NCBI GenBank assembly: GCA_017506865.1
Contig: JAFCMP010000334.1
Coordinates: 1,364,001-1,428,000 of the forward strand
Source of the DNA: Tribonema minus
Lineage: Eukaryota > Sar > Xanthophyceae > Tribonematales > Tribonemataceae
DNA: 64,000 nucleotides
Direction: 5' to 3'
The notes below the pieces were generated by a model that was not told the origin of the DNA, ran no database searches, and saw nothing but the letters and a program-made list of their open reading frames with translations. Positions 10,953 through 55,500 of the stretch are shown piece after piece. How positions within the stretch are numbered: the first letter of the stretch is position 1; the number at the start of each line of letters is the position of its first letter. Both the position numbers and the translations under genes were made by a program.

Positions 10953-13900
10953 TCATTGTGTCGGAGCGCTGTCATCCGTTACGCGGCGCACGTCGAGGCC
11001 TTCGAACCCCGGCAGGTCCGCCAGGATCGGGTCAACGTTGAAGGTGAGGATCTCATCGGGGAAGAGGTGCGCGGCGGCGGCGGCGCCGGGCGCGCCGCGC
11101 AGCGCGTAGCGCGGCGGCGCGGCGCGGCGCAGCACGTCATGGCCGTACGCGCAGCCCTGCGCATAGCGTGATGAGCAGCGTGCGCACGTGTCCATGAGCG
11201 ATGATGCGCTTGCGCAGGGGAAGGGGGCGCCTCGTGCGGCTGCGGAAGCGCGCATTGCGGCGCTGCTTCTGCATTTGTTGGGGCAGCTCGTGCGCGGCAT
11301 GGCTGCTGCATGCGCTTAGAGAGGCTTTCTGCAGCGCACGCCGCGTCAGCGCTTCAGGGGAGGCATGCGCGCTCACAGGAACACCCGTGGCGCCGGTGTC
11401 TCGAGTCGCGGGGGCGACAACGCATCGTCCAAAGTCTAAGTTGGCGGGTTTCAAGCACGGCGTACGGCGTGACTGTCGCTCAGCCGCTACCATACGTCAC
11501 AGGCTGGTCCGGAGTCGAAACGGCCCGCCGCTTCAAGAAGCCGCGGTCTCACTAATAGGCAAAATCACTTTCGAGAAGTGCGGGAGGCAGTGCTCGGTGC
11601 GTGAGCAGCAGCAGCTCATCATTGATGAATAAGCATCATACCTTGCGGACGCCGTTGAGGATGTTTGCGCGATCCCGCTCGAGCCGCCCCACCTCCGGCT
11701 CCCCCTCCGCCAGCGACAGCGGCAGCAGAAACGGCCCCTTGTCGCCCGCCTGCGGCGCGCGCAGGGACGTGAACCGGGAAGAAGTAGGGAGCATGGGCTG
11801 GCCAATGTCATTGCGCAGGGCTGCGTCTGGGCGGTTGCAGTGGGTAGTGTGTTGGGGTCGTTGAATAAAGTTGGATGAGTTCAGGTGTATGCGTGAGCTG
11901 CAATGCAGAGTTGAAGTGAAGGCGAAACGCCCGCACACCCCAGATGCGCGTCGCGCTGTCGATCTTTCGCAGCGGCGGCGCCGACCCTGCGAAGCGCAGC
12001 ATCTCTTGTTGCTTGTAACGCTTGGGCTATGTGAAGATGCTCAGCTTGGCCATGGGCTCTGCGCTCGGGCTGTAGCCACGCATGATGACAGGCAATTGAG
12101 GGCTTGCATGTTGCATTATGTAGGCAGTGTGCCGCTACATTGCTACACTGCTATACGCAGCGCACACATCACGAGGTGAGCCGCGACGCGGCGAGCTGTT
12201 GCGAGAGCCACTGGCAACCCCGTCAGACCGCTCACTTCGATCTCTGCGACTTTGAAACGGTCAATGCGCGCAAAAGAAACTGCTGTGCGTACCGAGAAGT
12301 GCGACTATCGCCGTCACAGAAATACCGCGACGCGCTGCGACAATGAACATGCGGCACACAATGAATCACAGCGGCGGCGCAGCGGCGCCATAGCAAGCTG
12401 CGCGCGCACCTTGGCCGTGGCCGCCTCATTGAGCCTGAGCACGTCGCGCGCGTACAGCAGCTTGTGCCCCGCCGTCTTCATGTACGTGTACATGGCGGGC
12501 ATGCCGTGCTTCCTGCGCGGCGCGCACGAGGGCGGGGGGGGGAAAGAGGGGGGGGGAGGGTGATTCGAGTCGAAGTTGAGGTTGTGCGCACCGCCGCTCA
12601 ACGAGCGCACGCCGCGCGCGTCAGGCGTCATGTGCCTTCAAGTACGTGTACATGGCGGGCATGCCGTGCTTCCGGCGCGGCGCGCGGGGAAGAAGTTGAA
12701 GTTGAACTTGAGGTCGCACACACCGCGCATCAGCATCAGCCGTCGGGAGAGACGGGACGAGGTGAAGTTGAAGTTCTGACCAACAACGCGCACCAGCCGT
12801 TGAGTGAGTTGAGGTAAGGTTGCGCATACTACCGCTCCACCAGACGTCCGGGAAAAGACGGGATGATGTGAAATTGAGGTTGCGCACAACCGCGCGCATC
12901 AGGCGGCGGTATGTGCATGCATGGTACATGTACATGGCGGGCATGTCGTGCTTCCTGCGCAGCGCGGGGGACAAGTTGAAGTTAAAGTTGAAGTTGTGTG
13001 CACTACCGCACAATCAGCCGCAGGTGATGCGAGTCACAGTTAAGGTTGCACGCAGTACTGCTCAATCAGCCGGTGTGGGAGACGGGATGAGGTGAAGCTG
13101 AGGTTGCGCGCGCCGCACGTATCAGTCGCCGTGTGCTGCCTTTCTGCACGGTGCTCAGAACACGTCATAGTGCGAATGCAATGCACGCAAAGGGGCGATA
13201 CTGAAAGTCGTTTGAGGCCAGCAGTCCAACCCTCAGGCTCAAACAAAAAGTGCGCAGAAGACGCCGGACGTGCTGAGCAAGAGCAATGCACACACACGCG
13301 CGCAAGCGCCCGCACCTGCTGCAGCCACCATTGCAAGTCAAACTCCAACGAGGTTAGAGAGAATTGAGGTTGACGCTCCACACAGACCCACTGGTCAGCG
13401 CCGTGTAGCACACGCGCGGATCGCATACTGAATTTCGAGCACCCGAGAAGACGCGCAAACTTCAGAATTGAAGTTGGGGCACTCACTTGGTGAAGTAGCG
13501 CTTGGCGATCATGCGCTCCGGCAGCTTGGGCTTCCCAATGAGGCTGCAGCCATCCGGCCGTGACCGCATCACCACCACGTGCCTGCGGCCCATGGAAGGG
13601 GGGGGGGGGGGCAGGTGAATGAGGGCGCAGACTTCTGCTTGATGCGTGTTCGCTTGCATTAAATGCGGGTCTGTAGTGAATGAAAAGAAAGTGTGCACGA
13701 GCCTGTTTATTGGCCGTCGTATTTTGGTTCCACTTCCGGGATCGGATGCCGGAAGCTGTTCAGGACCTGCTTGAGTGCACATGTGATCACCCCTTAGCGG
13801 CCCATCGCCATGTACGACTGCCGGATCAAGTCGCTTTTGGAGATGGACGCTCATGTACGACACAAGACCTTTGTCAGGGTCCACCGGCTATATTAAAGCA

Positions 13901-16900
13901 GGCACTCAGCATTGTGTGCTGAGGCACTGGAAGCAGCGCATGTGTCGACGGCCTTAATCACGCTACCAATGAAGAATGGTCACCTACACTTGAATACGGC
14001 CTTGATCACTTGACATGGTTGAATTGCTGCATACGCTTGAAGGATCGATGGTGTCCGCCAGGAGTACTGTGGCTACACACACACACAGCATCATGCTTTC
14101 CGTTCTGGCAAAAAGCGCATGTTAATAAGGGGCCTGACTCACGTGCAGCCGTCGTTGAGCGCCGCCCTGTATGGTATTGGCTCGTACAGCTGGCTGTCCA
14201 CAAGCGGCTCATCCACGCCGGGCAGCGTCACCTGTTGAAGTACAGAGCGGGGCGCACAAATCAGCGCCATTCTCACGCTGTTCTATGGCATTGTGAGCAT
14301 GGCGCATGCTCGCACGGCAGCTGCGGCGCGGTGCCGTCAGACGAGAGCGGACAGACATGGCTGGCACGACTTGCTCTGACCCGTTACCGCTGCAGCGAGT
14401 GTAGATCGTAGCGCAACGCTGAGGCCGCACAGACACTTGCAGTGATTTTCGTTACAATCGCCGTGTACGTCCTGGATCTCCAAGCACCCATCTGCGCCTT
14501 CAGCGATCCACTGTATGCACAATTCGACAGTTGAACTTTGGACAGGGGGCTATACGGGGGGCTGATGAGACGCCGCTGAGCAGTGGACACGACTCGCAAG
14601 GCCTGCTGTTGTGCGCTGTCAGCTTCCAGCAGAAGGCAGGCCGCGAGGCACAGCGCATACAGCCGTGCCCCCAGGCAAGCGCGTCGCGTCTCTACATCCC
14701 CACAGAATAAAAGCATACTCCGCATTGAGCATCTGACAGGCTCTCACCATGGGCCCCGCGATCCCCGGCAGCAGCATGCTGGCGCGCATGCACGCCGTCA
14801 GCTCCCGCAGCGTCTTGAAGTGTCCCCCCGCAGAGCTGAGGCCACAGCAGCAGCGAGCAACACTTGCATCAGCAATTAGGGAGGGGGGGGGGGGGGGGGG
14901 GGGGGCTGTGCCGGTGTGCGTACGCCGCATCGACTGAGCCGTGCGCATCCGCTGCCAGCGGAGCACTGCCTGGCATACAGGACATCTCTGTTATGGGGGA
15001 CGCACAGGCTGTTGTCACTTGCGAGTTCACGACGCTGCGGACGACTAGCAATTCCGCACAGCACGTATCATACGACGCGCAGCCTCCCGAGCGCGCCCTG
15101 CCATGCACTGCAACAAACGTGCTTGCCGCAGGTGCACACGGACTGAGCATATCGAGAAAGCGCGCGCTGCCTTCCAAATCGCACTGGCGCGAGCGCGTGC
15201 CGCTCCACGAACTGGTGCACACAAACCCAGGTGAGCAATCGTCCTGAGAGCAGTTTGCTCTTGAAGTGAGTGAACCCAGGTGAGCAATCGCCCTGAGAGC
15301 AGTTTGCTCTTAAAGTAAGTGAATCTGCTGAGCGTCAACGGCAGGAGCACTAGACTCACTTCAAGACCACACTGGTGCAGGGACAATCCAGGTTTGGAAA
15401 TTGCCACTGGGAGAGGCTCGCGCTTGAAGTTGGTGAATTCGCGGAGCGTCGACTTGCAAGGAGCGCCGCGTACTCACTTCAAGATCACGCTCAAGTGTCA
15501 CTGGCCACAATGTTCACCAGCCAACTCACAAGGAGTACCGTACTCACTTCAAGACCACGCTCGAGGTTTCTCTCTTCAACGCACTGATGCAAGTGCGTGC
15601 CGCTCTAGAAGCTGGTGCATGCAATCCAGGAGCACATGGCCATGAGATGTGCACTCTCTCTCTCTCCCCCTCTTGAAGTTGGTGAATTTGCGGAGCGTCG
15701 CCAGCAAGGAGCGCCGTGCACTCACTTCAAGACGACGCTCGAGTGCGAGTGCATGCCGCTGGCCACAATGTTCATCGGCTGGTCCCGCTGCCGCTCCCAG
15801 AAGCGCTCCCAGTCCAGTGGCCTCAGGCGCTCCACCACATCCCCCAGCAGGTAGTCCAGCTGCGCAGGACGGGCCGGGGGGGAGGGGGGGGGGGGGGGGC
15901 GCGCCAAGAGGGAGGGGTAAGCGGTGCGGGCGGGTGGGCATGCGTACTGCAGGCTGGGCATGTGTACTGCGTCTCCCACCAGGTAGTCCAGCTTAGCAGC
16001 ACAGGGGGAGGGGGCGAAAGGGGGGCAAAGTGCAGGTGGGTGGGCATGCGTACTGCGAGTTGGAGTGGGTGTACTGCGGCAGGTGGTGTGCATGTGCTGC
16101 GTCGAGCGGCGCGTGCACGCTGCGGCAGCTCTTTGGACAGTGCCTCCGCTACCTTGCAAGGGCATGTGAACTGCATCAGGTGCCCATCTGCACTGCATAT
16201 AACGCCATGTATGCATTCTCGTGTACTGCATCGAGGTCCTGGGTGAGCGCACTGCAGCAGGGCAGGCAGGTAGGCAGGCATAGCCGCATCTCGGCGTCCG
16301 CGTCAGCGTCGGGGTTCTCCTCCATGGGGGCATGCGCTCGTGCGGCACCTTGATGACGGGCGCGCCGATCCTGTCCCGCGCCAGATCGCGCAGCCCCGCG
16401 CGCCGCGTGAACGGCACCGCCAGCGCGCCCACGCCCATGGCGCGCCCCAGGAAGCGCGTGTCGATGAACGAGCGCCCCGCGTTCGTGAGCGCGTCGTAGT
16501 ACACGCTGCAGCCGAGGCGCGGCATGCCGGGCTGCGCGGCGATGGCGTACGCGCCCACCTGCGGAGCGCGCGGCAGGGGGGGGGGGGGGGGCGGGGGCGT
16601 GAGTGCAGTGCGGCGCCAGATCCAACCTCAACGACGCGCAGCGCACGCGGGCGCAGCGGTGAGTGCGCGTTATGAACGCTGCCGAGCGCTGGTGCGAGAT
16701 TGCGGCGTGCCGGGCTGCGCGGCGATCGCGTGCGCGGCGACCTGCGGGGCGGCCGCTGGGCAAAGCGCACGCGAGCGCGAGCAGCGGCATCAGCGAGACT
16801 GTCGCGTGCGCACGCTGAAGGGGGGGGGGGCGGCTGAACGCCGTCGTGTAAGGCGCTTCTGCCTTGGGACTGGTGCCGAGAGCTGCCGCGTCGGCGCGCG

Positions 16901-20619: not shown

Positions 20620-20961
20620 CGCCTGGCTCGCCAATGCACTGCCTGGTATGTTCAGAGCCCGGCGATGCGCAGATGCTTGCGTCGAGACCTCCAGTTCGGA
20701 TCCTCTGTCGACGCACCAAGAATGGACACTCTTGAAGTCCACTCTTCAACTGGTGCTCGACGTGCTCGTACACGGAAGGCACAAATCTTTAGAAGGCGCC
20801 AGTAGTTGTTGTTTTGCTCAACGCGCCAGGTGTTTGCACTGCCGGACAGAAGAGCCCCGCCGCGGCGAAGCAGAACATCAAGATGATTGGATCCGTTTTT
20901 GGGTTCAAGGCGTGCTGTGGCCAGCCCTAGAGACTCTGTCAGCGCTTGCTTCCCCAGCATC
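20620..20961. promoter_or_regulatory. Shared divergent promoter region, patatin / fused kinase
   Basis: 342 bases separate the patatin start (minus, 20619) from the kinase start (plus, 20962). They must hold both 5' UTRs and promoters, unless an unseen exon lies farther out. No TATA box is evident. The inference rests on gene orientation only. Confidence 0.45.
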
Positions 20962-38300: not shown

Positions 38301-38555
38301 GGTGGGCACAGGACGCGCGCACCCATACATACATGCCCATGATCTGCTGCGCGCCATCAGGGCGCGGCGACACTTGTGCAGCGCAGCGCTGTGGCACGAT
38401 CATCAGGCGATGGCGGCGATGGCGGCGGCGGTGTGCATACCAGTACGCACGGTCTACGCTGCATGCCACAACTTCCGTTGCAGTGCTCTGCTGCATGCCG
38501 TCACGGCGTGGCTGCATCCTTGCAAAGCCGTTTGTGGTACACAGCATCAGGCGGC

Positions 38556-38593
<38 letters not shown>

Positions 38594-38619
38594 TGGTGCC
38601 GGTGCCGGCAGTCCGGCGG

Positions 38620-38651
<32 letters not shown>

Positions 38652-41600
38652 AAAGCATTCGCTGCTTGGCGTCCGTGTACAAACTTCAAGTATCCCTTCT
38701 TCATAGGGGTGCGGGCCACGTACAAACTATAAGTATCCCTTCTAACAAGAGTTGCTTGCCGGTGACGCTCCTGGCGGCGGCGGCAACGTTCGGGCCGCTC
38801 TGTCCTAAATGGTGAAGTTCTGCGCACTGGCAGCTCGGCGCGACGCGATGGCACGTGTGCGCAGCGTCAGGCAGGTGTCGCTAATTACTGTCACGCGCCA
38901 CTGGCACGTCACCGCAGGAAGGTCCTACGATGCCAGCGAGCGATGCGCCACCGCGCGGCTGGCGTCAGTCCATCGTCTGTGACGCGAGCCTCGTGAGCCA
39001 ACCGCCATCGCTGTCGTGATGCGCGCCATCGCAGTGCTGAATCGGGCGCCTTTGTGACAGCAACATCTGAGGCCCGTTTCTACCCCTGGTTCCTTCGAAT
39101 CGCATCTCGCGTTCTTCAGCAAAGGTCGGAGAAGATAAAAGAAAATCTGGTCATTAGGAAGGCTTTCGCTGTACTTGGGCTAATCGCAGCGGGTGTAGGT
39201 TCGAAGTGATGCTACAAATAAACCAGTTTTAAGGCCAAATTGTGCAAGTTTACTGACTACGACGCGTCTCTGTGTGGCTGCTGCGCGTGCAGGTCGGATG
39301 CGTTGGCGACGGCGACAATGCGCTGGACAAGTTCGACTCGCGCTCCGTCGTCAAGGTACGTTACGTACGCACGCATGCGCACCGCGGCACGCTGCTGCCT
39401 GCCGTATGCGACTCTCAAGTCACAAGTATAAGTCTGAGTGCCAACGCAACTTGCCTGTGAGTGGCGCTGGACAAGTTCGATGCGCGCTCCGTCGTCAAGG
39501 TACGTACACGCGCATGCAACTCTCACGTCACAAGTTCAAGTGTGAGTGCCACCGCGCCTCGTGGATGAGTGGCGCCAGCGATTCCACACTGTGAGCCAAC
39601 TGCCTGTGAGCCAACTGCCCTCGACGAAGCCCCTCCCCGCGTTCAGACGGTAGTGTGCGTGGGGGTGCGTCCATGTCAGCACGTCCCAGCGTGCCCGCCC
39701 CCTGGTCGCATGTTGTCGGTACCCCCCCCCTGTCGCTGCCCTCAGCCGCGTACCTTGCATGCTCGCTCATTTGAGGCTCAACGCCCACTGCCTCTGCGTG
39801 CGCATCACCAATCTTGGCTGCCCGCTCACTGGTTTGCCGTTCGCCGCCGCCGTTGCTGCTGCTCCTGTCGGCTGCGTGTGCGCAGGGCGCGACCATGGTG
39901 AAGGAGTCCAAGGCTCGCCAGGTGCGCACCAATCGAGGCTGCCGCTGCTGCTGCTGCTGCTGCCGCTGCCATTTCATCCGCATCGAATGTGTGTGCGGTG
40001 GCACACCAGCGTTTACCGGCGCGTGCGCTTGAATCAAAATGCGGTGTTGCAGTTGCGAGCCTTGTTGGTCACGATTTTGTTGGTCCTGCCGCGTTCAGCA
40101 GCCGTTCTTAGCAGCAAGTGCTGTGTGCAGCAGCAGTTGCGAGCCACTTTCATGATGACGTCATTGGCATGGCGCAACGCGACTGCGCACAAAGTGTACG
40201 CGCATGTACCGTCCCTCACGGCCCTCCACGTCAACGTGGGGCCTGGCCCCATCCTTCAAGTTTGGGGGGCGTTCCGCTGGTCGCTTCACCGTGTGTGCGA
40301 TCCTCTGCATTCTATGAAGAGCACATGGGAAACGTGTTGTGTTCAACTTCAACTCTTCAAGTTCAACTGTCTGGCGCGGCCCCTTTAGATGTACCATTGG
40401 CCCCTGTTGAGCATGCTGTGAGCACAGGCAGGCATGCTGGACAGCCTAATGTACATACAATACGTACCTCGCTTTCTGTGGCGCAGCAGCCGGCATCTGA
40501 AAGCGGCGCCTGCTGCGACCCGGCGACGACTGATTTCGCGTGGCGCAGGGCGTGCGTTTCGGCTGCCCTCAACCCCCGCTCTAGCCCTACCTAACCCTGG
40601 CCTCATTGCGCGTCTTTCGACTGAGCGCAGATGAACGCGTGGGGCTCCAGCACGGGGTACGCGGAGAGCCTCAAGGAGAAGGGCATGCAGAAGATCATCA
40701 ACGGCGAGGACATGGTGAGCGCTGCTGCTGCGGCTGCTGCGTCGCAACCGCGTCGCTGCTGAGTTGCAGTGATCAATGTGGACTGTTGTTGTGGCCGCGT
40801 CGCGATCCGGCGTCATCGCGGGCAGCGCTCAGCTGCGATGATGCGGCCGCTCCTCGCGCCGCGCGCCGCCAACGGCTGCACATGTTGCGCAGCAGCGGCG
40901 GCGCGCTTAGGAGGAGATGGGGGACAGGCGTGGGGTGGGTGGGAGGGGAGGGGGCGACAGCGTGACACCCCCCTCAGTGCTGCGGGGGGGTGCGTGCCTC
41001 GGCCACGACGCCCTGGTACACGGCGCCAGGCACGGCGTCAGGCGGCGGAGCGATGCTGCATGGCACGCGTGCCCCCGCCAGCGGGGGGGTGCCCCCGCCA
41101 GCCGGGGGGGGGGCAACAGCGTGATACCCCCACTCACTGCTGCAGGGGGGTGCATGCCTCAGCCGCGGCGCCGCAGTAACGTGTGCGGCAGACGCAGCAG
41201 CGGAGCGATGCTGCATGGCACGCGCGCCCCCGCCAGCGCCGCCGCCGCCGCCGCCGCTGCTGCGCTACGGCGGAGCGGCAGCGCGGTGGCAGCGTGGGCC
41301 AACCTGCTCGGGGAGGACTGTCTGCATTTGTCTCATACGCCTGCGGCACGAACAGCAGCAGCAGCACATGGATCAGGGCAGTGGAAGGGGGAGGGGGAAG
41401 AGGGGGGGGGGGGGGGGGGGCAAGGCGGCGCCACAGGCGCTATGGTCCCATAAGGGTTGATGCGCGGGCGCTGCTGTCTTGTCTGCAGTGCGCGGCGATC
41501 GTGAACGTGCGTGCTGCCGCCTCATTGAGAGTAGCGTTGCTGAACTCACTGCACGCGGGGCGCGTTAGCCAACGCCCGCCGCGCACGCCGCAGCCATCCT

Positions 41601-44600
41601 GCGCGGTGAATGAGAAAGTGCCGTGGCGGCAATAACCGCTCTTTGCAACACGGTCTGCAAAAACCCCTACATTGAAACTTTCGATTCACCACCTGCACTG
41701 CTTAATGGCGGTGTGCTGATGATGCCCCTGCCCCCCTTGCCCCCCTGCTCAGTGAACCAGGAAGTTTCTGTTTCATGGCGGCGTGCTGACAGTTGCCACC
41801 CTGCCCCCCTCCCCCCCCCCCCTGCGTGCGCGCGCAGCTCGCCGTGAGGCGCCAGCAGCTGGAGAACTGGCGCAACCAGCAGGAGCTGCAGGCCTCGCAG
41901 CGGGCCAAGATACAGCAGCTGGACGCGATCACGGGGCAGGAGAACAACCCCGTGGGCTGGAAGGTGCGTCACCGGAGTTGAAGTGCAGTGGTGACATGTG
42001 CGTCGCTGCACGTGTACGCTGTAGAGTCGCCGTGTCCGCTCCGGCTGCATACGCATGGCCGGCTGTGTAGTCCTCTGTACGCGCGCACTGGTGTGCGGGG
42101 TTAGGGTTAGGGGTAGGGGTAGGGGTAGGGGTTGAAGAAGGGCGTACTCGCATCAGACGGGCACTGCTGCGCGGCAGCAGCGGCGCGGGAGGCGCACGCG
42201 TGTCTCTCGCGCAGTGGGCAGAGGCGCAGCGCCTGGGCATGCGCAGAAACAACAAAGAAAGCAGGTCTCGTGTATCCTTGCGCTTTCCCAGAAGCCTTCC
42301 TGCTTACACACATCCTTCACTAGCGCCACAGTCAAACAATCGCCTGTGAATACAACAGTCGCATGTCCCGCGCTGCCTGCCTTCCTGCACTCTCTTCGAG
42401 GGTGCCGCCGCCGACCCCAGCGTGAACTGTGTATGAACTCTGCGGTGGACTGTGAACCGCTATGCACAGCTCGCTTTACCCTGTGTCCCCCTCCCCCCCA
42501 CGTTCCCTCATCGACGCCGTTGCTGACCCTGCTTTGAGATGCGGAGTTCGCCTTTGCTGACTTTTTTGTGAACTGCCTGTGAACTCTGCGCTGAACTCTG
42601 CGCTGAAGCGCGGTGAACTCTCGCGTGCAGCGCGGCGCGTCACGCGAAGTGCGGTGAACTCTGTGATGAACCCTCCCTGCACTGACCCCGCTGTGAACCG
42701 CGGTGAACTCCACGGCAAACTCTACTTGAATCGCGTGCAGCGCGGCGCGTGGCGCTCGTACATGGGTGCTGAGCCGTCGCCGCGGACTGCGGCGAACCTA
42801 CGTTGATCTCTTGCTGCTGACCCCGCTCTGAACTTTGGTGAAATCTACGGTGAACTCTACTTGAATCGCGTGCAGCGCGGCGCGTCGCGCTCGTACATGG
42901 ACAACCTGAGCGGCGGCGCGCCGGCGGAGGAGTCGGCGTGGAATGAGTTCAAGCCGCCCACCGCGGCGGATGCCAAGAGCGACGGCACCTCGTGGGACCA
43001 CGTCAAGCTCACGGGCAAGGAGAAGATCACTGCGACCGTGCAGTGCATCTCCAGCAGCGGGCGCCCCGGCTACGCGACGATCAACGTGAGTGAGCGGGGG
43101 CACGCGCACGTGATGATGCTGCACGTGGCTGAAATGCGCGATGATGGCTGTGCGTTCAGCACTTTAGAGTAGTGCATGCATACATACTGACGCTGCACTT
43201 GGCTGATTGTGCACCCATGGCTATGCGCCTGGGCTACGCGACGATCAACATGAGCGCATTGCTGAATGCGGACCACGCAGCCAAAGAAGGCCACAAAGCT
43301 GTAGAATTCCTTCAACTTTTATCAGTACAGCGACCGTGCAGTGCATCTTCAGCAGCGGGTGTTGCGGCTTCGCAACGATTACTGGGATAGGGAAGAGTGT
43401 GATGATGATCAATATGGGTAACACGAAAGTGAAAAATGCCCATGTACCTTTTCTTTTATTAAGCAGCAATGCCGATTGTTTTCAACCAATGATCGCAACG
43501 ACAACGAAGGCCATGTAATACAATGGCATAAATGTATGCAGAGCAGCTTCTCTTTCATGTGGATATGTACATGTGCTATACGGGTACACTTGTGGCTATT
43601 GGTGAGCCTGACCGTTGCATGGCGTGCGCTGTGCCGTGCCCAGCACGCCCAGTTGTAGCCCACGCATGCGGTGCTAGCCTACCCGTGCTAGCCTATGCGA
43701 CCCCCCCCCCCCCCCCCCGCCAGGAGAGCTGTGCTGCGTACGCAGTTCTGAGGCGTGCATTGCGCATTGCGCTCTGCAGCTTCCATCCTGCTGCCGGTGC
43801 TTTGGCATCTGCAACATGCAATGTCACTGCCATGTCACGCCGCAGACGCTGTGCTGCGCAGCAGAGCTCGTATCGACGCATCCGGCTGTCTCCGTGGAGC
43901 TGACGCATTTGCACCTGCTGCCGCTGCTGCTGCTGCCGCTGCCGCCGCTGCTGCTGTTGCCGCCGCCGCCGCTGTCGCGCAGGTCAAGAACTCCGTCATG
44001 ACGTTTGAGCCGTTCCACGCAGAGTACGTGGGCGAGGCGGAGGGCTTTGGCGTTGACCCCAAGGTGAGCAGTATCGCTGAGCTGCGCTGCAACATCACTT
44101 CAGATTTGAAGTGCAACATCACTGAAACATGAAGGTTCAACATGCCCCCCCTGCAGCACACTATGTGTGGGCAGGTGTTCCTGCGCACTACCTGCCGCAC
44201 GCCACACGTGGCCTCCCTTCGGAAGCGCACAGCGCACACTGCCGCTGCGCGCCGCGCCGCGCGCTGCAAATGGCGGCGACCGTGCTCATCAGACGCCGTG
44301 GTGCGCGCGCATGTTAGGACTCCTGCACGCCGCCTCGCAGTCGCAGCCACCACAGCTCAGGCGCTTTGCAATTATGAATGCCATTGTGGAGAGTGCTATG
44401 ATGAGAGTGGTGCTCTGCGCACCCCCCCCCCCCCCCTCCCCGCCTCTACCGCCGCCCCTCCACTAGCATCACTCATTGGAGAGTGTACTAGGCACCGCTA
44501 CATAGCTGTGCAGTCCGCGGAGCTCGCAGAGAATGGCCATCACACGCCCATAGAAAATTCTTACGCTTTCCGACACAGCTCCCGCTGACAGCGCCGCAGT

Positions 44601-45162
44601 TTGCCCCGCCCCCGCCTCCCTCGCCCCGCACACAACAACCCGCCGCCGCTGCAGATGGACAAGTCTCGACAGGCGCAGCAGCGAGCCTCAATGCAATCCT
44701 ATACCCTTGCACCCGCTTTATACAACATGCGGACGCCCACGAGCCTGTGGAAACCTATCACTTCCCAACAGCTCCCGCTGACAGCGCTGCTGCTTGCCCC
44801 GCCGCTGCCTCCCTCCCCCCACACACGACAACAATGCGCCGCCGCTGCAGACGGGCACGCTCAGCCGGCGCAGCAGCCAGCCTCAACGCAACCTAATACC
44901 CTTGCAACCACCTTGTATAAACACGCGGACGCGCACGAGCCTGACAGCGACGCTGCTTGCCCCGCCCCCGCCTCCCTCCCCCCGCACACAACAACGCGCG
45001 CCGCCGCCGCAGACGGGCACGCTCAACCGGCGCAGCGGCGAGGCGATCCCCGTGCAGGTCTCGTTCAAGGCGAACGGCCCCGGCGACGCGCGCAACGCGC
45101 TGCTCGTCATCGAGACGGAGGAGGACAAGTGGGTGTACGAGGTCGAGGGCCGCAGCGACTGA
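35333..45162 (+). CDS. Plastid-targeted conserved protein, 11 exons, 358 aa
   Basis: Exons: 35333-35369, 35485-35597, 36693-36805, 38238-38301, 39293-39355, 39886-39921, 40631-40714, 41838-41963, 42876-43085, 43983-44063, 45013-45162 (TGA); every junction keeps phase. The N-terminus (MKAALFTAAAALASQHVDA, then FVVPGAPSLTAVRAGARS) is a signal peptide plus a Phe-led transit segment, the signature of import into a complex plastid. The mature part has an acidic start, then FDGGDGQ-VGCVGDGDNAL, a basic helix (RRQQLENWRNQQELQASQR), and a C-terminal Ig/MSP-like beta domain (IPVQVSFKANGPGDARNALL, ETEEDKWVYEVEG). I believe related proteins with GGDGQVG exist in diatoms and other chromists, but the function is unknown to me. 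Very small exons (36 and 37 bp) sit in large introns. The alternative, a non-plastid secreted protein, is less likely. Confidence 0.8.
39328..39511 (+). repeat. Copy of exon 5 donor edge in intron 5
   Basis: Exon 5 ends GCGCTGGACAAGTTCGACTC, then GCGCTCCGTCGTCAAG|GTACG (39328-39360). The same text with few changes recurs at 39463-39511, donor included, 135 bases downstream. Confidence 0.9.
42097..42133 (+). repeat. Interstitial telomere-like repeat
   Basis: GGGGTTAGGGTTAGGGG followed by four GTAGGG-type units inside intron 8 of the plastid-protein gene. Shorter complements (CTAACCCTAACC type) occur at 35221, 40592 and 56478. Confidence 0.85.
42600..42910 (+). repeat. Copies of exon 9 acceptor edge in intron 8
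   Basis: True acceptor: CTTGAATCGCGTGCAG|CGCG at 42860-42879, continuing TCGCTCGTACATGG. A near-identical copy lies at 42716-42765 and a shorter, more degenerate one at 42609-42645. Confidence 0.9.
43041..43390 (+). repeat. Copies of exon 9 donor edge in intron 9
   Basis: The exon 9 end (GTGCAGTGCATCTCCAGCAG, then GGCTACGCGACGATCAAC|GTGAG at 43038-43090) is echoed at 43228-43258 (GGGCTACGCGACGATCAAC) and at 43333-43385 (CGTGCAGTGCATCTTCAGCA, then GGCTTCGCAACGATTAC). Confidence 0.85.
44600..45060 (+). repeat. Three units carrying exon 11 acceptor edge
   Basis: Units with CCTCCCTCGCCCCGCACACA-like text, CGCCGCCGCTGCAG and then an exon-like start occur at 44608-44700 and 44785-44890. They match the true 3' splice site and exon start at 44960-45050. 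The second unit keeps ACGGGCACGCTCA and GCCGGCGCAGC of exon 11. Confidence 0.85.
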
Positions 45163-47092: not shown

Positions 47093-50000
47093 TCAGTCGA
47101 CTGCTAGTTCGTGTGCAACGCTCGCGTCCACTGCGTCGTCCGCCGCCGGCGGCAGCACCGGCGGCAGCGGCGAACCCTGCAGCGCGGGCCACGCCCCCGG
47201 CGCCTTCTTCATGAGAACGAAGCGCACGCTGCGCTTCATCTTGCGCACCGCGACGCCCGCGAGCTCGCCGTAGAGGTCCGTGAAGGCCGCCACATGCGCG
47301 CCGTACCTGCAGTGGGGGCGAGAGTGCATGGATGGGTGAATACATATATACATTAGGAACTCACACAGGCGCGGATTTGTCGGCGCGAGTTTGTCGTCGG
47401 TCGTCGTGGCTGCACTGCCGCAAAAGGCTTGCACGCAATACGCAATTAGAATCTGACACACACACACATACACGCACAAACACACACACACACACGCACG
47501 CGCGCGCACACACACGCACTGGGTTGGCGCATTGCAGTGTGCACGCCGTGCCGAGCACAATTTCGCCTGCGGCAACAGCCGCCAGCCCATCGGCACGCGC
47601 GCATGGCAGGCGCGGACGTCGGGCAGACGCGTGTCATTCATGAACCACTACGCGTGCTGCATGAACCAGGTCACCTGGTGCAGCACACGCGCAGCACACT
47701 CGAAAGAAAGTCATCACATCACAAGCATGGATCCCGCATGGTACTTCAGGCGGCGTGAATGATGCCGCGTTACTGCATGTGCAAGAAGGGGCTCCAAGCG
47801 CCTGCTGCGGGGGCGCAGCCCACAGTGCTCAGCGCCACTGACGTACACGAGCCGGCATCTGAAGGGCGCCTGTCTGAGTCGTTGCACCGCAAGGCCTCTC
47901 GGGTTCACACGTCTCGCCTACCGCAGTTTAGTCGACGCCTAACCATCCTGATGACATGCGTCTACTTTTCAGCAGTTGCATTGCAATGCGGCGTGGGCTT
48001 CGTAAGCGATGGCGGGCACGCACTTGGTGCTGTTGATGGTGAGCCGCGCTGATCTGCCGTTCCAGTCCGCGGAGAGTTCCTGCGCTGGCACCTGGGACCA
48101 GTCCCAGCCCTCTTGCCGGAAGTCCAGCCGCACCTGCGCGGGGCAAGCGAGAAAGCGCAGCGCAAGTGCGGGTGTGCCAGAGCAAAAACACTGTTAAGGG
48201 CCGCTGCTAGCTTAGACAGGGTGGATAGATCACAATCAATGAGCACGGGCAACATGTGCAGCTCGAAAGTACAGGTTGCACATCGACAGGTGTTGAACAT
48301 CGTGCAAGGGCAACATGTGCAGCTTGTGATCGGGGCGGTGAGGCGCGATCGGCAGGCCGGAATGTGCGAAAGCGCGACAATCATTAGCTGCGACTTCAAC
48401 AGTCGCATACCACCATGCGCCCACTTGCGCGCGGACAGACTGTAGAGGGCAGGCACAAAACGCAGCTTGACGACAGGCTGGTGAAGAGAGCGCTGCAGCT
48501 AGCAGCAGCGACACCTCGCATCTGCGCGCGGGTAGCGTCGCACGCAACAGCAGCGGCTGCGGCATGGAAAAGCGTGCTCGCCTCATGCAACGTGTCCTCA
48601 TGCATGTAACTCGTGATCTTTGATCGGCAAGCACCAACAGTTCTTCTGCTTCAATCCCCACATGCGCCCGTGCAATCGGCGCGCACCATCATCAAGTTCA
48701 ACTTCAATCCCGCATGCGTTTAGTTGCGCTCACCTCGTGAAACGTGTCCTCATACGTATAGCGCGTGATCTTGATCGGCGAGCACCACCAGCTTCAACTT
48801 CAATCCCCACAGGCGTCCGCGCAGTCGGCGTGCGCCATCAAGTTCAACTTCAATCCCCACATGCGTTCGTGCGCGCTCACCTCGTGAAACGTGTCCTCGT
48901 ACGTGTAGCTCGTGATCTTGGTCGGCGGCCGCGCCGTGACGATCCTCGTCCCCAGCGGCTTGGGCCTGTTCATCTCGAACTCGTGGCTCGCGATGCCGTC
49001 GTCGGGAAGCTTGCTGTGGTGCGCCTGGTAGTACCCGAGCTCGCTCTGCGAGGGGGGGGGGGAGTCAACGCATGTACCGCGTGCGAGGTCAGCCGAGTCG
49101 AGTGTTGTCCCCTTGTTGTTTTTGACTTCTGCAGACCGCACGTGCAGGGTCAGTCAGCTGTTGTCCGCTGTTGTCTTGCCACGGTGAGTACGCAGGAAAC
49201 AGCGGCCGCGCAGAGCTGTCGCACACGCGCTTGCTGCCACAAGCCCCGTGCAAATTCTTTGATCGGGAGGTGCCGACAAGTAGGCCGGCCAAAGGGGCTG
49301 CTGCTCAGCTGGCACTTGCGGCCCCGCACCTGCGCCAATATTGACTGCAGATCCGTTTCCATGGTCTGTTGTGCCATGATGCGCATGCACCATGATGCTT
49401 GGCAATTTTGGCCCTCGCTCTGAGCAGACACCTCAATTTGTAAAGTCACTGGGGGTAATGGCACACACGTGGGTTTACAGTGAGAGGTCCGCAGACCTTT
49501 GAGCAATCGCAGTGCTGGAGGACTGATCCTCTGCATGCTGCGCCGCGCAGCTCACGCTGGCATCGGTGTGTCGGCAGGGGACGCCGCTGCGCTGCTGCTT
49601 CCACTGCGACGCGTATGACGCACGCGCGAGTCACCACTGAGAGTGGACTGTCTGCGTGCTGCGAGGCGCGGCGGCGCGCACGCTGCTGCAGCAGTACGGG
49701 CGCACCGCTCCGCTGCGCCCATCGCGACGCGTTGCACTGAGGAGAGACACCGTGAAGTATGGCGTAGCGCACGTTCGCCGTGCTCGCGCTCCACGCGCAG
49801 CAGAGGCCTGCACCTACAAACCTTGTACTCTGGACAGGTTCGCGCGGCATTCGCAGCCAGGCCGCCTGCGCAGCACAACGTGCTGCCGTCGAGCCCCCCC
49901 GTACCTCCTTGTTCGCACGCTACCCAGACTTCAACTGAGACATGAAGTAAGTCGTTTGCCGCAGGCGCTGAGCGATGCGCGTACCGCGTGAATCTTTGCC

Positions 50001-52096
50001 TCCACGCGGTCCCGCGGGGCCCGGTGTGCGTCGCAACCAGGCGCTGCAGTGCTCAGTGCTGCAGCAGCCGAGCACTGCCATAGGCACCGCTCTCAGCGCA
50101 ACAGCGCTAGGGCACTATGAAGCCATCTGTCCCATAGGTGATCACCGCGCCTCACTATCATTGTCACCCCGCCCGAATGAATGCTCGCGTTCGCCACCAC
50201 ATCTGCTTCACAGCACATAAGCGCGTACACGCTCGTCAAGAGGTACTGTGCGTAGCGGCGGCGGCGGCGCGCGCACCTTCGCCTTGCTGCGCTCCCAGGG
50301 GGTCCGCCCGTCCCCCGTGCCTGCGGCAGCGCTCCGCTCCGGCGACGCCTTGGCGCTGCCGCCCTGCGCGGGCTTCTTTGCGACGGACACGCCCGGCGTC
50401 GACGTCGCGACGGGCGTCTTTGGCTTGGGCACGCCGATGCCCTCGACGCTCTTGCTTTCCCACCAGTTCTTCTGCTTGCCTGCCGAAGGCGACGAGCGGC
50501 GGCACACGATGCGTTGTCATGATCTTAGAGTTCTGGTCATTGGTGATGCGTTGTCATGATCTTAGAGTTCTGGTTATTGGTGACCAGCGGACGCGGCATG
50601 GATGTCAGTTTGCGCTGACACTGTCAGGCCAGGGCCAGGTCTGAAGCAAAGACCCCACATCGTCCCTTGCTTGACAGCAAGTCAACGGCCACAAAGTAAT
50701 ACGGGGCATCGTGAATCATCCCATGTCAAAACACGCGCCCCTTCTGTCTTTTCCATCGCATCTTGCGATAATGCGACATGGCAACCCTGGCAACGTGGTT
50801 CACCTGCATCGGCGCTCTCTGGAGTGTGGCGCTCTTGCTGTGAGCAAATGTGCTGCGCTCTGCCTGGTAGAGCACAATGTCGATGATATCGCTGGCGTAC
50901 CCCCTCTCGCACACGCCGATGATCTTTCTATGCCCCACGCATGCTTGCATTAAGGATAGTGGTGCGATCTCAGGCTCTGTGGTAGATGAGGGACAGATTT
51001 GTAGTCTATCGTGCTTCACACTGTCATGGCTCACAAGACTGCCTGCGCAAATGCACAGTAGCTGCGGCTGGACTGCATCATGTGCGAATGTGAAATCCAC
51101 ATGTTGAGCTGGAGGGAGTGCGCTGTGTGCTGATGTCCGCACGAGAAACATCGCACTTGCTCTGGTGCACTATCGTTTCATGGGGTTGATGCAAGAAATA
51201 CTCTGGAGTCAAACCGTGCTGAAACTTTCAAAAGCACGCGTGTGCATATAGCGGTATCAGTGAAGTTTAGCACTGGGTGTAGGGGCTTCAGCTCTGTTGA
51301 AGCGCGGCTGCTACTGTTGAAGTCTGTTGCTGACGTGTGCTCGGTAGCGATAGTAGGGCAAGGGCTGTCTAGGCGCCAGCAAAGTTCAATTCGTTGCATT
51401 GAAAGAAGCTTTTCGCAATCATGCACACAACCGACTGTCGTGCGGTGGAAGCACCTACAGAGGACTGCTGCGACACAATACGTTGGGGATTCAACAAAGA
51501 CATCAAGTGGTGTTCATGCTGTGCTGCTGCGTCAATGCCATGGATAGACGCAGCCATGAATTGCGCGCAGGGAGTGCTGCTGCCGCCGCTGCTGTTGCTT
51601 CTGCTGCTGCGAAATGATCATTCAGGGCTCGCGATGGCGCAAGCTGCACCTCTCTGCTGCCCTGCTGCTACCGCTGCTGCTTCTGCTGTTGCTATCGCAT
51701 CTCAGGGGTGAACTGTTACATTCTTAAGGATGATTGGGAATACACTGTCCAGTAACAGTCACAAAGCAGTACAAATAGGCTACTGCTACATCGCCAGACC
51801 TGAAGCGAGCCAGCTCCTGCCGAGCCCGCCTCGACTGGGCGCCAACAACATTCTGTGCATCTCTCTAGCACTGCGGTCCTGCCGTCCACGGTGACCACAT
51901 CTGCCGTAAAGCACGGATGTGATCTGTCTGTAACGTGTTGCGCATGTTTTCTACAGCGCCAGCAATCAACTTTGCACACACCTTTCGGATCGCCTCCTAG
52001 CCATCCCATGTGCAGAGCAGCTGCAGTAACCAAACCCACAATCATCATCACCACCACGGTCATGTCCAGGTACGTGATGTCGCTTAAGGCCACCAT
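47093..52096 (-). CDS. Membrane-anchored CS-domain (CacyBP/NudC-like) protein, 5 exons, 268 aa
   Basis: CS domains are p23/alpha-crystallin-like beta sandwiches that work as HSP90 or ubiquitin-ligase adaptors. Exons (minus): 52096-51982, 50479-50277, 49045-48881, 48133-48024, 47306-47093 (TGA); total 807 bases, phases agree. Exon 1 supplies a single membrane helix (MTVVVMMIVGLVTAAALHMG); joining it to exon 2 gives GGDPK-G-KQKNWWESKS in phase. Exon 2 is a Pro/Lys-rich linker. Exons 3-5 give TKITSYTYEDTFHE-VRLDF, ARLTINSTK-YGAH and MKRSVRFVLMKK, the strand order of a calcyclin-binding-protein-type CS domain. The membrane anchor is unusual for this family and depends on exon 1, which I chose by phase. 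An internal start in exon 2 is the alternative. Confidence 0.72.
47455..47517. repeat. CA/CG microsatellite
   Basis: A run of CA dinucleotides with CG interruptions, in the sequence between exons 5 and 4 of the CS-domain gene. Confidence 0.9.
48568..48930 (-). repeat. Three copies of CS-gene exon 3 donor edge
   Basis: Plus-strand text at the true donor: CTCACCTCGTGAAACGTGTC, then CTCGTACGTGTAGCTCGTGA (48876-48916). A close copy lies at 48729-48780 and a weaker one at 48579-48632. The spacers also repeat TTCAACTTCAATCCC three times (48698, 48793, 48842). Confidence 0.9.
50508..50581. repeat. 37-bp perfect-type tandem duplication
   Basis: GATGCGTTGTCATGATCTTA, continuing GAGTTCTGGT-ATTGGT, occurs twice back to back with one mismatch, 29 bases upstream (gene sense) of the CS-gene exon 2 acceptor. 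Confidence 0.95.
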
Positions 52097-52519
52097 CCGG
52101 CGCTGAGGACCCTGCTAGATGCGCTCCAGATGCAGTCAGTCGCGGCGTAGTTCAGCACGCTGTATGCGTGCCCAGTGGCTTGCCCTTCAGGATCTTTCAC
52201 AAAGCTCAGCAACAGCGATGCTGGCAGGCTGTGAGCAAGAGAGAGCGCAACAGGGAAAAAAGTTTTCGCGAAGCACCGAAGTGCAAGTTTGAAGTCCTCC
52301 AAAACAGTTGGGGAAGAAGGAAGGGGAACGAACACAGAACACTGGAGCAACGTGCCACAGCCTGGAGCACAGACACGCGGGAGGCGCGTCCACACACACT
52401 TTGGAGACAGAGTATCGGTGGATTTGGCGCGCCGTGCCTTCGTGGAGTTGTCCGAGGTGCAAGACCTGCGACTCTCAAACAAAGAGATCTTCTGTCAGTG
52501 AGCAAGGTCCAAGGCAGAG
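52097..52519. promoter_or_regulatory. Divergent promoter region, CS gene / Rieske oxygenase
   Basis: 423 bases between the two start codons, genes head to head. No TATA box is evident. The ORFs inside it have no family match and are probably UTR sequence. Confidence 0.45.
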
Positions 52520-55500
52520 ATGCTAGCTCAAAGTTTGACTGCAGCCCTACTTGTCAGCGTCTTTGTGAACGGCTTTCACCTGCCTCCACGGCATCTTTCT
52601 GCGACTGGCCTCACCTCGTTCAGCAAGCCCTTCAGCGGCTGCAGCAAGTCACCATTGGAGCAGCTCCAGGCTTCCCCCGCCTATACCAATGGCGCAGCGG
52701 ATGCATCGCCTGCTGCGTTCACTGCGGATGCGCCAGTGACCGTCAGTCCGCAGTGGGCGCAACAGGTGGGAAACTGGTTTCGTGCGGGTTAAATTCATTG
52801 AGGCTTGGTGATTTTTCGCGTACTTGTGAAGCGCGCTGCTGTGCTGTTACTGCAGGTCTCCGTCTCGCCCAACAATACAACTCAGTTGAATAATATTTCT
52901 CGCTGGCTTTCAAGGTGGTTAGGAAGCTGATGCTGCAACTGTTCACTTGCAGTCATGTGCATTGGTCTCCTTCATGGTCACGCCTTTCACAATGACCTCA
53001 TAAATTGGTCAATGCACATGTCTTGTTTTATGCCTCGTGGTCATCAGTTACACTAGTGTTGTTAGGTGATGCTGCTCCACTCATGGCGACAGATGCGGCA
53101 CGTGATTGCATCAACACGGCCTCAGCAAGGCTTCACAGCACCGAATTCGCTGGCATTTGACCTGCGCCTTCGCCAGCACCCCCGCTCACTCCTCACCCGC
53201 TATAAGCATTGTAGTAATGGTCACTATTGCTGCTCATGGGAGGCGCGCGCGGTCACCATTCACTCCCTCCTCCTGCATCTCACAAATGTAAATCAATGTC
53301 CTCCCCTGTGCCTTTCTGCGTTTGGTGACGGTTGCAGTGGTGGCCGCTGGCGATGGAGAATTTGACGGACAAAACGCGGCCGCACCAGCTGACGCTGCTC
53401 AACGAGCACCTGGCGCTGTGGTGGGACCCCGTGGGGGAGCGGTGGAATGCGGTGCATGATACGGTGAGAGCCTTGTGTCTGCCGCTGCCGATGACGGATC
53501 AAACTGAGTATGGTTCATCCCTTCAGAGCCATGAGGCAGGAAGCTCGGGGACCATCTAGCAGGACAAAACCGCACCGCAAAAGGATATGATGGTGATGGT
53601 GCTGCCTCCATTTCTGCAGAAGCTAAGACCGAGTGCGTACTTGTGTGATACAGATTGCAACATAGCGGTCTCTTTGCTGTCGGCTTATGCGACGACACAA
53701 TTTATGAAGCACGGGACCATACACGGCTGCAACTCATAGAAACGTGTACTACAGGGGGTACGCTGGCAACCAGCAGTGCTATACAGTCTGTTTCCTTGAG
53801 ATGCAAGAACACCATACACACGCGCATATGCCTGGCAGGTCGTGCTATCATCCACCTGCCCCCCAGCACCAAACAACTATGTGTGCCTCCCACCTAAGCA
53901 CTGACTTGGCAACTTCAAGCCACTGACAACATGAAGCAGCTGACATCCCCCCCCGCCCCCCTCTTCCTCTGACTTGGCAATTTCAAGCCACTGACAACTT
54001 CAAGCAGCTGACATGCCTGACTCGCCCCCGTCCCCCTCTTCTTCCCCCCCGCCCCCCCCCCCGCGCGGCAGTGCCCCCACCGCATGGCGCCGCTCTCCGA
54101 GGGGCGCATCGACAAGCGCGGCTGCATAGAGTGCCCGTACCACGGCTGGGCGTTCAGCGGCGACGGCACGTGCGTGAGCATACCGCAGCAGGACGACCCG
54201 ACGCACGCGCCGCGCGCCGCGCACGATGTGCGGGACTACCCTGTCGAGGTACGCGCCTGTAAGCATGTGCTGTTGCCTGTGTGTACCATACATACGGTAT
54301 GCAGGACGACCTGACGCACGCTTCGCGCGCCGCGCACGACCTGCGCGATTAGCCTGTCGAGGTACGAGTTCGAGACACGTATGACGCCTGTGCGTGTCAT
54401 ACGAAAGGCATGTGCGCGTGATACTTGTGCGCCGTGCGATACCCTTCCGGGTCGGCAAGGGGGGGGGGGGTACGGGGGGCGAAGCGGAGCACTGAGTGTA
54501 CAAAGTGACATGCGCCCTGTGAAGTATCACAAGAGTCAGTGGCGGCCTTCACTGTGTTGTTGCTGTTACTTCATGTCCGTGCGTGCCTGGCTCACCTGCC
54601 CGCTGCGTCTCTCTCTGTGAGCGCGCAGGTGAGCGAGGGCATCATCTGGGCGTGGGCGGGGGGCGACACGGAGCCATCGGGACCACCCCCGCAGGACATC
54701 CCGCCAGGCTGTGAGTGCCACTTATGCCCGTTTAATTCACACGTCAATGCGCCTGGATTGGTGCCTGAATTCGTCATGATGCTCAATGCAGCATGAGCTG
54801 CGGGGCGATGGGAACGGGTGGGGGAGGAAGGGGGGGGGGGGGGGGGCAGTCGGTCCACAGCCCACTGGTGCAGCGACGGATGCACACGCGCGCGAGCACC
54901 CTGTACTTGAGCAAGTCTTCGGTGCTCCCTTGGCGCGCATTGCGGAGCAGGTTGACGTGGCAGGTCGCCGGTGCAGCGGTGACGTGCCACCAGCACGGGG
55001 CACATCTGCTTTGCAGGGTCTACCAACCCTTGATGCTGCTGCTGCCGGCCCTGAATGATATGCGCCTCTGAGGGTACATGGAATTGCGCGCGTCGCACCG
55101 GTGCCACGCCACTGCGCCCTTGCTGCCCGTTCGCTTGCGCTGCCGCAAATGCAGAGTCCATTCGAACCTTTGCCCACTCTCGCCAGCAGCACCCACGTAT
55201 TGCTGTGTGTTGCACCGCGCCCATTACGTCACCGCGCTGCTTGTAACCGAAGCGTGCTGACGACGCCGCTCTTAGCAGCCTCCCCCACCCACCCACCCAC
55301 CCCCAGTCGGTCGCGACATGCATGCTGACGAAACCGCTATTAACTGCCTCCCCCCTCCCCCCCCCCCTCTTCCAGCCGTCGCGACCATCGACTACTTCCG
55401 CGACGCCCCCGCGGACTACGAGTCCTTCGTGGAGAACCTGCTCGACCTCGCGCACATCCCCTTCGTCCACCACCGCGCCTTCGGCGGCATGTTCACGGCG

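What the first reader, a model, noticed from the sequence alone, without database searches (positions are those of the whole stretch)
12410..55395. Introns repeatedly contain degenerate copies of the adjacent exon edge with its splice site
In at least four genes (patatin, plastid protein, CS protein, oxygenase), and for both donors and acceptors, 30-60 bases spanning the exon-intron junction are tandemly copied one to three times within the next few hundred intronic bases. Copies include the GT or AG and then decay. This looks like a systematic process (slippage or repair duplication anchored at splice sites, or a source of alternative exons and intron growth), not chance repeats.
Basis: partly seen in the sequence, partly recalled or inferred. 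Interest (0 to 1): 0.85.

Follow-up and report, generated by a model that had tools for sequence, protein, structure and literature searches.

The report
Intron-grown copies of exon ends
In the sampled parts of this green-alga-like genome about one exon end in five has a decaying copy, splice site included, in the intron beside it; the copies look like leftovers of short DNA duplications that straddle exon-intron borders and lengthen introns.

Summary
In 326,664 sampled bases of a 158-Mb algal-type genome, 60-base exon edges have a copy in their own intron for 35 of 145 donors and 25 of 145 acceptors; edges of other genes give 3 of 2,877 each. Units are mostly about 100-190 bases, some 20-80 of them exon. 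At 36 of 81 junctions the alignment fills at least 70% of the unit, as in a head-to-tail duplication. The exon copy stays functional; the intronic copy decays neutrally and usually keeps GT or AG (95 of 104). Using a decoy would rarely be harmless. Some excess at edges is expected, because a frozen exon copy stays recognisable longer. Position-blind simulations still give too few junction copies (0.67-1.18 against 2.59; gene bootstrap 1.94-3.53) and too many long exon parts. So duplications are concentrated at exon edges, or the simulations miss something; the cause is unknown. Closest known: short tandem duplications from break repair, and intron gain by tandem duplication. No RNA evidence was available.

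The parts
12439..12525 (-). patatin-like gene: true acceptor edge of exon 12370-12512 (exon part plus intron edge)
   Evidence: Patatin PF01734 E 1.8e-10 for the predicted protein
12607..12685 (-). decoy copy 1 of that acceptor edge, 80% identical
12882..12994 (-). decoy copy 2 (core 12924-12966, 93% identical to 12482-12524)
15671..15774 (-). patatin-like gene: true donor edge of exon 15726-15859
15423..15516 (-). decoy copy of that donor edge (80%); further pieces at 15307-15373 and 15529-15565
15840..15891 (-). acceptor edge of exon 15726-15859; copy at 15972-16025 (78%, E 0.002)
16519..16578 (-). acceptor edge of exon 16349-16558; copy at 16702-16760 (85%)
39320..39361 (+). true donor edge of exon 39293-39355
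39464..39505 (+). decoy donor copy, 95% identical; the following intron piece 39403-39467 recurs at 39511-39575 (78%), which fits a tandem duplication with a 36-base indel
42866..42900 (+). true acceptor edge of the exon starting at 42876; copies at 42621-42645 and at the end of 42643-42765
43029..43090 (+). donor edge of the same exon (read as ending at 43085); copies at 43225-43254 (GT changed to AT) and 43327-43379
   Evidence: and reading; not counted by the pipeline because the gene finder extended this exon to 43149
44941..45042 (+). true acceptor edge of exon 45013-45162
44575..44880 (+). two decoy copies of that acceptor edge (44575-44685 and 44768-44880), both with CAG
48871..48927 (-). 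true donor edge of exon 48881-49045; copies at 48728-48780 and 48572-48628 (TRF unit 147 x 2.4)
54179..54253 (+). Rieske oxygenase: true donor edge of exon 54072-54248
   Evidence: PF00355 E 4e-15
54291..54366 (+). decoy donor copy, 86% identical
55252..55385 (+). 68-base unit x 1.9 reaching only 10 bases into the oxygenase exon at 55376; copy at 55252-55317

Best explanation
The copies are relics of recurrent DNA duplications, mostly about 100-190 bases long, that straddle an exon-intron junction. Shown: the copies and their excess; head-to-tail structure at 36 of 81 junctions; neutral decay of the intronic copy while the exon copy is held by coding selection; a splice site in the decoy nearly as strong as the true one. 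Inferred: the other pairs are decayed duplications of the same kind; because the spliceosome keeps using the exon-contiguous site, each event adds one unit to the intron without changing the protein, so introns lengthen and fill with decoy sites. Also inferred, and least certain: junctions are hit about 2-4 times more than position-blind duplication predicts, with one breakpoint usually 20-80 bases inside the exon. The likeliest source is repair of opposed nicks or staggered breaks (fill-in end joining) arising preferentially at exon edges, perhaps for chromatin, R-loop or replication reasons, with some selection against copies that lie too close or carry too much exon.
For: Own-edge copies 60/290 against 6/5754 control. 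Shifting the repeats at random within each stretch: 81 of 290 junctions spanned observed, mean 40.5, sd 6.3, maximum 62 in 500 runs. Alignment length at least 0.7 of the spacing at 36 of 81 junctions; copies touching end to end, e.g. L015 (unit 120, 90%), window 147 (83%) and 68 (78%). Homology runs on through the intron part, with indels, in many pairs. Exon part: codon positions 1+2 10.0%, position 3 18.3%, intron part 16.3% over 38 pairs: one copy frozen except for synonymous change, the other neutral. Decoy-decoy: 15.3% exon-derived, 15.7% intron-derived, means of 34 pairs; pooled 219/1391 and 258/1498. Position-blind simulations: junction/free-coverage 0.67-1.18 in eight settings, observed 2.59 (1.94-3.53); exon 60-120 to exon 0-60 ratio 0.36-0.56 in four settings, observed 0.08 (0-0.15). 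Whole-alignment identity >=85%: 21 junction events, 5.7 expected from exon-free ones after a 1.54 correction of my own.
Against: At 45 of 81 junctions the alignment does not fill the unit; the six junction pairs at >=90% identity are only 39-51 bases long with spacings of 114-169, and L011 4844 has 51 bases at 98% beside a 76-base spacer that I could not align: adjacency is not shown for these. Gene models come from my own self-trained HMM, with no RNA. The sample is 327 kb and 42 genes, strongly clustered (L027 9 of 10 junctions, many genes 0). Simulations are simple and their duplication lengths come partly from junction arrays. The exon share of the unit departs from uniform (median KS p 2e-4, one junction per gene), but uniform is not the right null: simulated medians are 0.38-0.71 against 0.32 observed, so the real contrast is the missing upper tail. 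At >=90% identity the excess is 6 against 2.3, P 0.03. Exon-free pairs show no rise towards junctions. GC step does not mark duplicated junctions. Nothing here tests nicks, breaks or R-loops.
Confidence: 0.5

Rival explanations
1. Position-blind tandem duplication plus ascertainment. Duplications fall anywhere; those inside exons are purged, those straddling a junction are neutral, and they stay recognisable longer because the exon copy is frozen. No anchoring at all.
For: Explains the direction of the effects and the neutral decay. Simulated edge rates of 0.18-0.20 are not far from the observed 59/240. Duplications free of exons cover 7-12% of intron bases beyond the first 50.
Against: Predicts junction/free-coverage 0.67-1.18 (observed 2.59, 1.94-3.53), exon parts above 80 bases in 21-56% (observed 11%), intron parts below 40 in 14-51% (observed 6%). 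Adding selection against long exon parts and short units, in the two settings that finished, lowers edge copies to 0.03-0.09, further from the data.
Confidence: 0.3
2. Templated insertion: breaks inside introns are patched with filler copied from the nearby exon edge, so copies arise at a distance and not head to tail.
For: The six most similar junction pairs are short blocks with wide spacing; L011 4844 has a spacer that I could not align; in L012 a telomere-type run stands between two copies.
Against: 36 of 81 junctions have near full-length tandem alignment; around several of the short blocks (window 39355, L002 6035, L024 2927) the flanks also align, with many differences.
Confidence: 0.06
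3. The copies are functional: alternative exons, regulated or recursive splice sites.
For: GT or AG kept in 95 of 104 decoys (acceptors 45 of 46, donors 50 of 58) while the same dinucleotide elsewhere in the exon part is kept in 111 of 165; decoy site scores close to the true ones, donors 4.81 against 5.32, acceptors 3.84 against 4.60, background 1.17 and 1.06.
Against: Between decoys, exon-derived parts decay as fast as intron-derived parts; distances to the true site are spread over frames 38/33/31 and only 13 of 102 intervening stretches are stop-free, 9 of them also a multiple of three. Donor GT retention alone is not clearly above control (p 0.09).
Confidence: 0.06
4. Exon-to-intron gene conversion keeps refreshing the exon-derived part of old copies.
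For: Some pairs have a near-identical exon part beside a much more diverged flank, e.g. L016 5216 with 26 of 26 identical, L010 4744 and L012 828 with 96% within 71-74% alignments; gaps are rarer in exon parts, 1.6% against 12.5%.
Against: On average the ratio of codon-position-1+2 to intron divergence is 0.59, near the 0.5 expected without conversion; the cases named were picked as extremes, and exon parts lie at alignment ends, where gaps cut the alignment short.
Confidence: 0.06
5. Intron gain by tandem duplication of an exonic AGGT segment (new introns made of exon copies).
For: Established mechanism with many cases (PMC3443670, passages; PMC2891723, passages).
Against: Here the unit contains intron sequence as well; donor-edge copies lie downstream and are followed by copies of the intron start, acceptor-edge copies lie upstream.
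Confidence: 0.03

Closest known systems
Small tandem duplications from end joining of breaks with protruding ends (Pol alpha-primase/CST fill-in; PMC8355091, passages read)
   Same: Head-to-tail duplication next to the source; that paper cites the idea of nearby nicks in opposed strands for natural insertions in humans and plants
   Different: It speaks of short insertions under 100 bp, and the word intron does not occur in its main text; here units are mostly 100-190 bases and concentrate at exon-intron junctions
Intron gain by tandem genomic duplication (PMC3443670 and PMC2891723: passages; PMC4974935: listing and start of abstract only)
   Same: Tandem duplication next to splice sites, one copy becomes intronic and decays
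   Different: There an exonic AGGT segment is duplicated and creates an intron; here an existing junction is duplicated and the intron grows
Intron sliding (PMC7730772, passages)
   Same: Alternative splice sites near an exon border
   Different: No evidence here that the border moved
Decoy splice sites and exon-end motifs (PMC4476162, passages)
   Same: Unused sites in introns as a burden on splicing
   Different: Here the decoys have an identifiable source, the neighbouring true site

Membership tests
Short tandem duplications | two copies head to tail, unit equals spacing | tested here: inconclusive
   met at 36 of 81 junctions (alignment at least 0.7 of spacing); not shown for the other 45
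Short tandem duplications | formed by break or nick repair | not testable with these tools
   no mutant or mutation-accumulation data
Intron gain by tandem genomic duplication | new intron made only of duplicated exon sequence, AG|GT at both ends | tested here: not met
   aligned units include intron sequence beyond the splice site
Alternative or tandem exon duplication | copy constrained and in frame | tested here: not met
   neutral decay, frames 38/33/31, 13 of 102 stop-free
Alternative or tandem exon duplication | copy present in mRNA | not testable with these tools
   no transcripts
Transposon or introner insertion | same element at many unrelated introns | tested here: not met
   copies match their own exon; edges of other genes match in 3 of 2877 trials for each edge type

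The most novel reading that the evidence does not exclude
Exon-intron borders of this alga are mutational hot spots for a duplication process tied to the border itself (through R-loops, nucleosome phasing, replication stalling on entering exons, or splicing-coupled nicks), which repeatedly copies about 45 bases of exon with the splice site and some 100 bases of intron into the intron, and is a main route of intron growth and decoy-site birth.
Probability: 0.3. Interest if true: 0.8.

Novelty: new variant of a known kind. Interest (0 to 1): 0.55.

Why it matters
If exon borders are favoured sites of duplication, intron length, decoy splice sites and cryptic exons share one mutational source. 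It also gives a natural experiment in exon definition: two nearly equal splice sites with up to about 80 shared exon bases, one used and one (by inference) ignored. Practically, gene finding in such a genome is misled: for 38 of 119 edges with a copy, my gene finder labelled the copy scored there as exon.

Tried and rejected
Pure chance: rejected. Inverted copies: about 52 local inverted pairs against 470 direct ones, so direct repeats dominate. Exon GC step as the driver: no support, step 0.146 against 0.121, p 0.14. Interstitial telomere repeats as general filler between copies: 81 loci, 12 lie between copies of a pair; L012 is one clear case. A first young-event count (17 against 1.5 expected) was dropped as unfair because it scored only the exon part on the junction side; the whole-alignment version is used instead. 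A strong claim of constrained GT/AG was not kept: acceptors 45/46 are suggestive, donors 50/58 are not. Mid-intron rates (3/132) were not leaned on because base coverage far from junctions is not low. Simulation with selection did not reach the observed edge rate (six of eight settings printed, two of them with selection). Papers: ten searches showed no paper on this pattern by title or abstract start, but five of the lists were capped and the library lacks most subscription journals. Naming the species was not achieved; TTAGGG at the starts of contigs C2 and C3, 92 PF00504 matches and a MIP-T3 domain (a cilium protein, as I recall) point to a flagellate green alga (review PMC7046594, passages, names Dunaliella and 'Stephanosphaeria' with TTAGGG).
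Full report
Setting. The window is bases 1364001-1428000 of a 2.04-Mb contig of an unnamed eukaryotic genome of 158,181,000 bases. The repeat TTAGGG stands at the start of contigs C2 and C3, chlorophyll a/b-binding family PF00504 has 92 matches and one sampled gene carries a MIP-T3 domain, so a flagellate green alga is likely; the species was not identified. I took 26 further stretches of 10 kb and one of 2.7 kb, 326,664 bases with the window. No annotation was at hand, so I wrote a two-strand HMM gene finder, seeded on exons read by eye in the window and self-trained. 209 exons of at least 50 bases with a strong coding score gave 145 introns between confident exons, median 673 bases. Ten predicted proteins were scanned: seven have a Pfam family well above its cut-off (MIP-T3, protein kinase, FIBP, ABC transporter, LRR_9, peptidase M3, patatin), one has only a glycosyltransferase hit just above its cut-off (24.4 against 23 bits), two have none. 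Of three hand-joined window proteins one matches Rieske and two have nothing above cut-off.

The observation. Sixty-base exon edges (40 exon, 20 intron) were aligned with up to 600 bases of their own intron. At score 45 or more, 35 of 145 donors and 25 of 145 acceptors have a copy; edges of other genes against the same introns give 3 of 2,877 for donors and 3 of 2,877 for acceptors; exon interiors 5 of 113 and 4 of 108; random intron-interior windows searched downstream 31 of 369. With introns of at least 300 bases: edges 59 of 240; intron windows 20-140 bases from the junction 62 of 480; exon 0-60 bases from the edge 52 of 234; exon 40-100 13 of 202; exon 60-120 3 of 172; mid-intron 3 of 132; predicted intergenic 4 of 56 (the first, second, third and fifth totals repeated). 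Genes differ strongly: 75 of 214 junctions outside the window but 6 of 76 in it are spanned by a repeat pair; in eight genes with Pfam support it is 15 of 50.

Anatomy. Blast of each stretch against itself gave 470 local direct pairs and about 52 local inverted ones. Junction-spanning pairs fall on 33 donors and 25 acceptors by the strict rule. Over 81 junctions of exons of at least 100 bases the largest exon part has median 47 bases (10th-90th percentile 19-82) and the smallest spacing median 159 (104-227); the two are uncorrelated, r -0.03. The alignment fills at least 70% of the spacing at 36 of the 81. Clear head-to-tail cases are L015 (unit 120, 90% identical, exon part 56), window 48572-48927 (147), 44575-45042 (about 193) and 55255-55385 (68). 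In many other pairs the flanking intron still aligns, with indels. The most similar junction pairs are short: the six at 90% or more are 39-51 bases long with spacings of 114-169. One of them, L011 4844, has a 51-base block at 98% and a 76-base spacer that I could not align. So tandem origin is shown for part of the set and inferred for the rest.

Fate of the copies. For 38 pairs whose alignment holds at least 60 intron bases, mismatches are 10.0% at codon positions 1 and 2, 18.3% at position 3 and 16.3% in the intron part; the Jukes-Cantor ratio of positions 1+2 to intron is 0.59, and 0.59 again with one pair per junction, 29 junctions. That is close to what one frozen and one neutral copy give. 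Between two decoys of the same edge, exon-derived parts differ by 15.3% and intron-derived parts by 15.7% (means of 34 of 41 pairs, those with 15 bases of each; pooled 219/1391 and 258/1498; 23 junctions). The decoys are therefore not visibly constrained. Gaps are rarer in the exon part (1.6% against 12.5%), partly because the exon part lies at alignment ends. Decoys keep GT in 50 of 58 and AG in 45 of 46 cases, against 111 of 165 for the same dinucleotides elsewhere in the exon part; that control also counts synonymous changes of the exon copy. The acceptor figure is higher than neutral decay suggests and I leave it open. Kept sites score nearly as well as the true ones (donors 4.81 against 5.32, acceptors 3.84 against 4.60, background 1.17 and 1.06); decoy-to-true distances are 38, 33 and 31 in the three frames; 13 of 102 intervening stretches are free of stops. 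Using a decoy would mostly break the protein, so the true site must be preferred; this is inference, as no RNA was available.

Is it tied to the junction? Two effects favour junction copies without any anchoring: duplications inside exons are purged, and a pair with one frozen copy stays recognisable longer. Shifting all pairs at random within their stretch gives 40.5 spanned junctions (sd 6.3, maximum 62 in 500 runs) against 81 observed; a two-fold excess of this kind could come from those effects. I therefore simulated position-blind duplication with decay, small and large indels, deletions and frozen exons. The fraction of junctions spanned divided by intron coverage by exon-free pairs is 0.67-1.18 in eight settings and 2.59 in the data (95% gene bootstrap 1.94-3.53, 42 genes). 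Hits to exon 60-120 relative to exon 0-60 are 0.36-0.56 in four settings and 0.08 (0-0.15) in the data. Edge relative to near intron is 1.2-1.4 against 1.9 (1.42-2.74), a weaker contrast. Exon parts above 80 bases make up 21-56% in the simulations and 11% in the data. The exon share of the unit departs from uniform (one junction per gene, 29 genes, median KS p 0.0002, mean share 0.34), but simulated shares are not uniform either (medians 0.38-0.71 against 0.32 observed), so the contrast lies in the missing long exon parts. Exon-free pairs themselves cover 7-12% of intron bases beyond the first 50, without a rise towards junctions. Adding selection against long exon parts and short units makes the simulated edge rate fall to 0.03-0.09 in the two settings that finished. 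So either duplications really are favoured at exon edges, or the simulations miss something, such as faster loss of intron-only repeats.

Mechanism. Direct adjacent units are what repair of opposed nicks or staggered breaks produces; PMC8355091 (passages) describes fill-in synthesis by Pol alpha-primase with end joining and cites the same idea for natural insertions in humans and plants, mostly for units under 100 bp. Why junctions would suffer more of it is open: R-loops, nucleosome phasing at exons, or polymerase stalling at the exon border are guesses. Microhomology at breakpoints was not measured. Duplicated junctions have AT-richer flanking introns (GC 0.552 against 0.598, p 5e-5) and shorter exons (152 against 223, p 0.0009), while the GC step does not differ significantly. 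The cap on the exon part could also be selection, since a longer exon copy may be spliced in; the minigene test proposed would separate the two.

Known relatives. Intron gain by tandem genomic duplication (PMC3443670 and PMC2891723, passages) duplicates an exonic AGGT segment and makes a new intron; here existing junctions are duplicated with intron sequence in the unit, so it works alike but is not a member. Ten library searches showed no paper on degenerate exon-edge copies as a genome-wide feature by title or abstract start; five lists were capped and most subscription journals are not held, so this is weak evidence of novelty.

Limits. Exon borders are predicted; 327 kb of 158 Mb were sampled, most of it from one contig; duplication lengths for the simulations were partly taken from junction arrays; no transcripts, relatives or strains were available.

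Noticed in passing
window 1-5046 and 58814-63832: A 5-kb inverted repeat, 93% identical over 5,068 aligned positions, flanks a centre of about 54 kb; predicted genes at the two ends share sequence.
   Followed up: partly
L012 787-808, L015 9686-9739, L002 4081-4108 and others: Interstitial TTAGGG telomere-type repeats: 81 loci in 326,664 bases, 78 labelled intronic; one sits between two copies of a duplicated acceptor edge (L012). The 36-base perfect repeat matches at 1,935 + 2,713 places genome-wide, overlapping places and contig ends included.
   Followed up: partly
sampled stretches, e.g. window 12690-12715, 48790-48805: The motif AGTTGAAGT / ACTTCAACT occurs 71 times where a Markov model expects 6; I saw it near some repeat units but did not count that.
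   Followed up: no
window, e.g. about 12533-12560, 14880-14906, 41402-41421: Long poly-G/poly-C runs: 37 G/C runs of 8 or more against 1 A/T run in the window; those named lie in predicted introns.
   Followed up: no
L023 6661-7303, 7738-8380, 9154-9796: Three separate arrays with the same 330-base period, 95-96% matches within each; whether they are the same sequence was not checked.
   Followed up: no
window 42098-42132: GGGGTA x 5.8 next to a TTAGGG stretch, a variant telomere-like array inside an intron.
   Followed up: no
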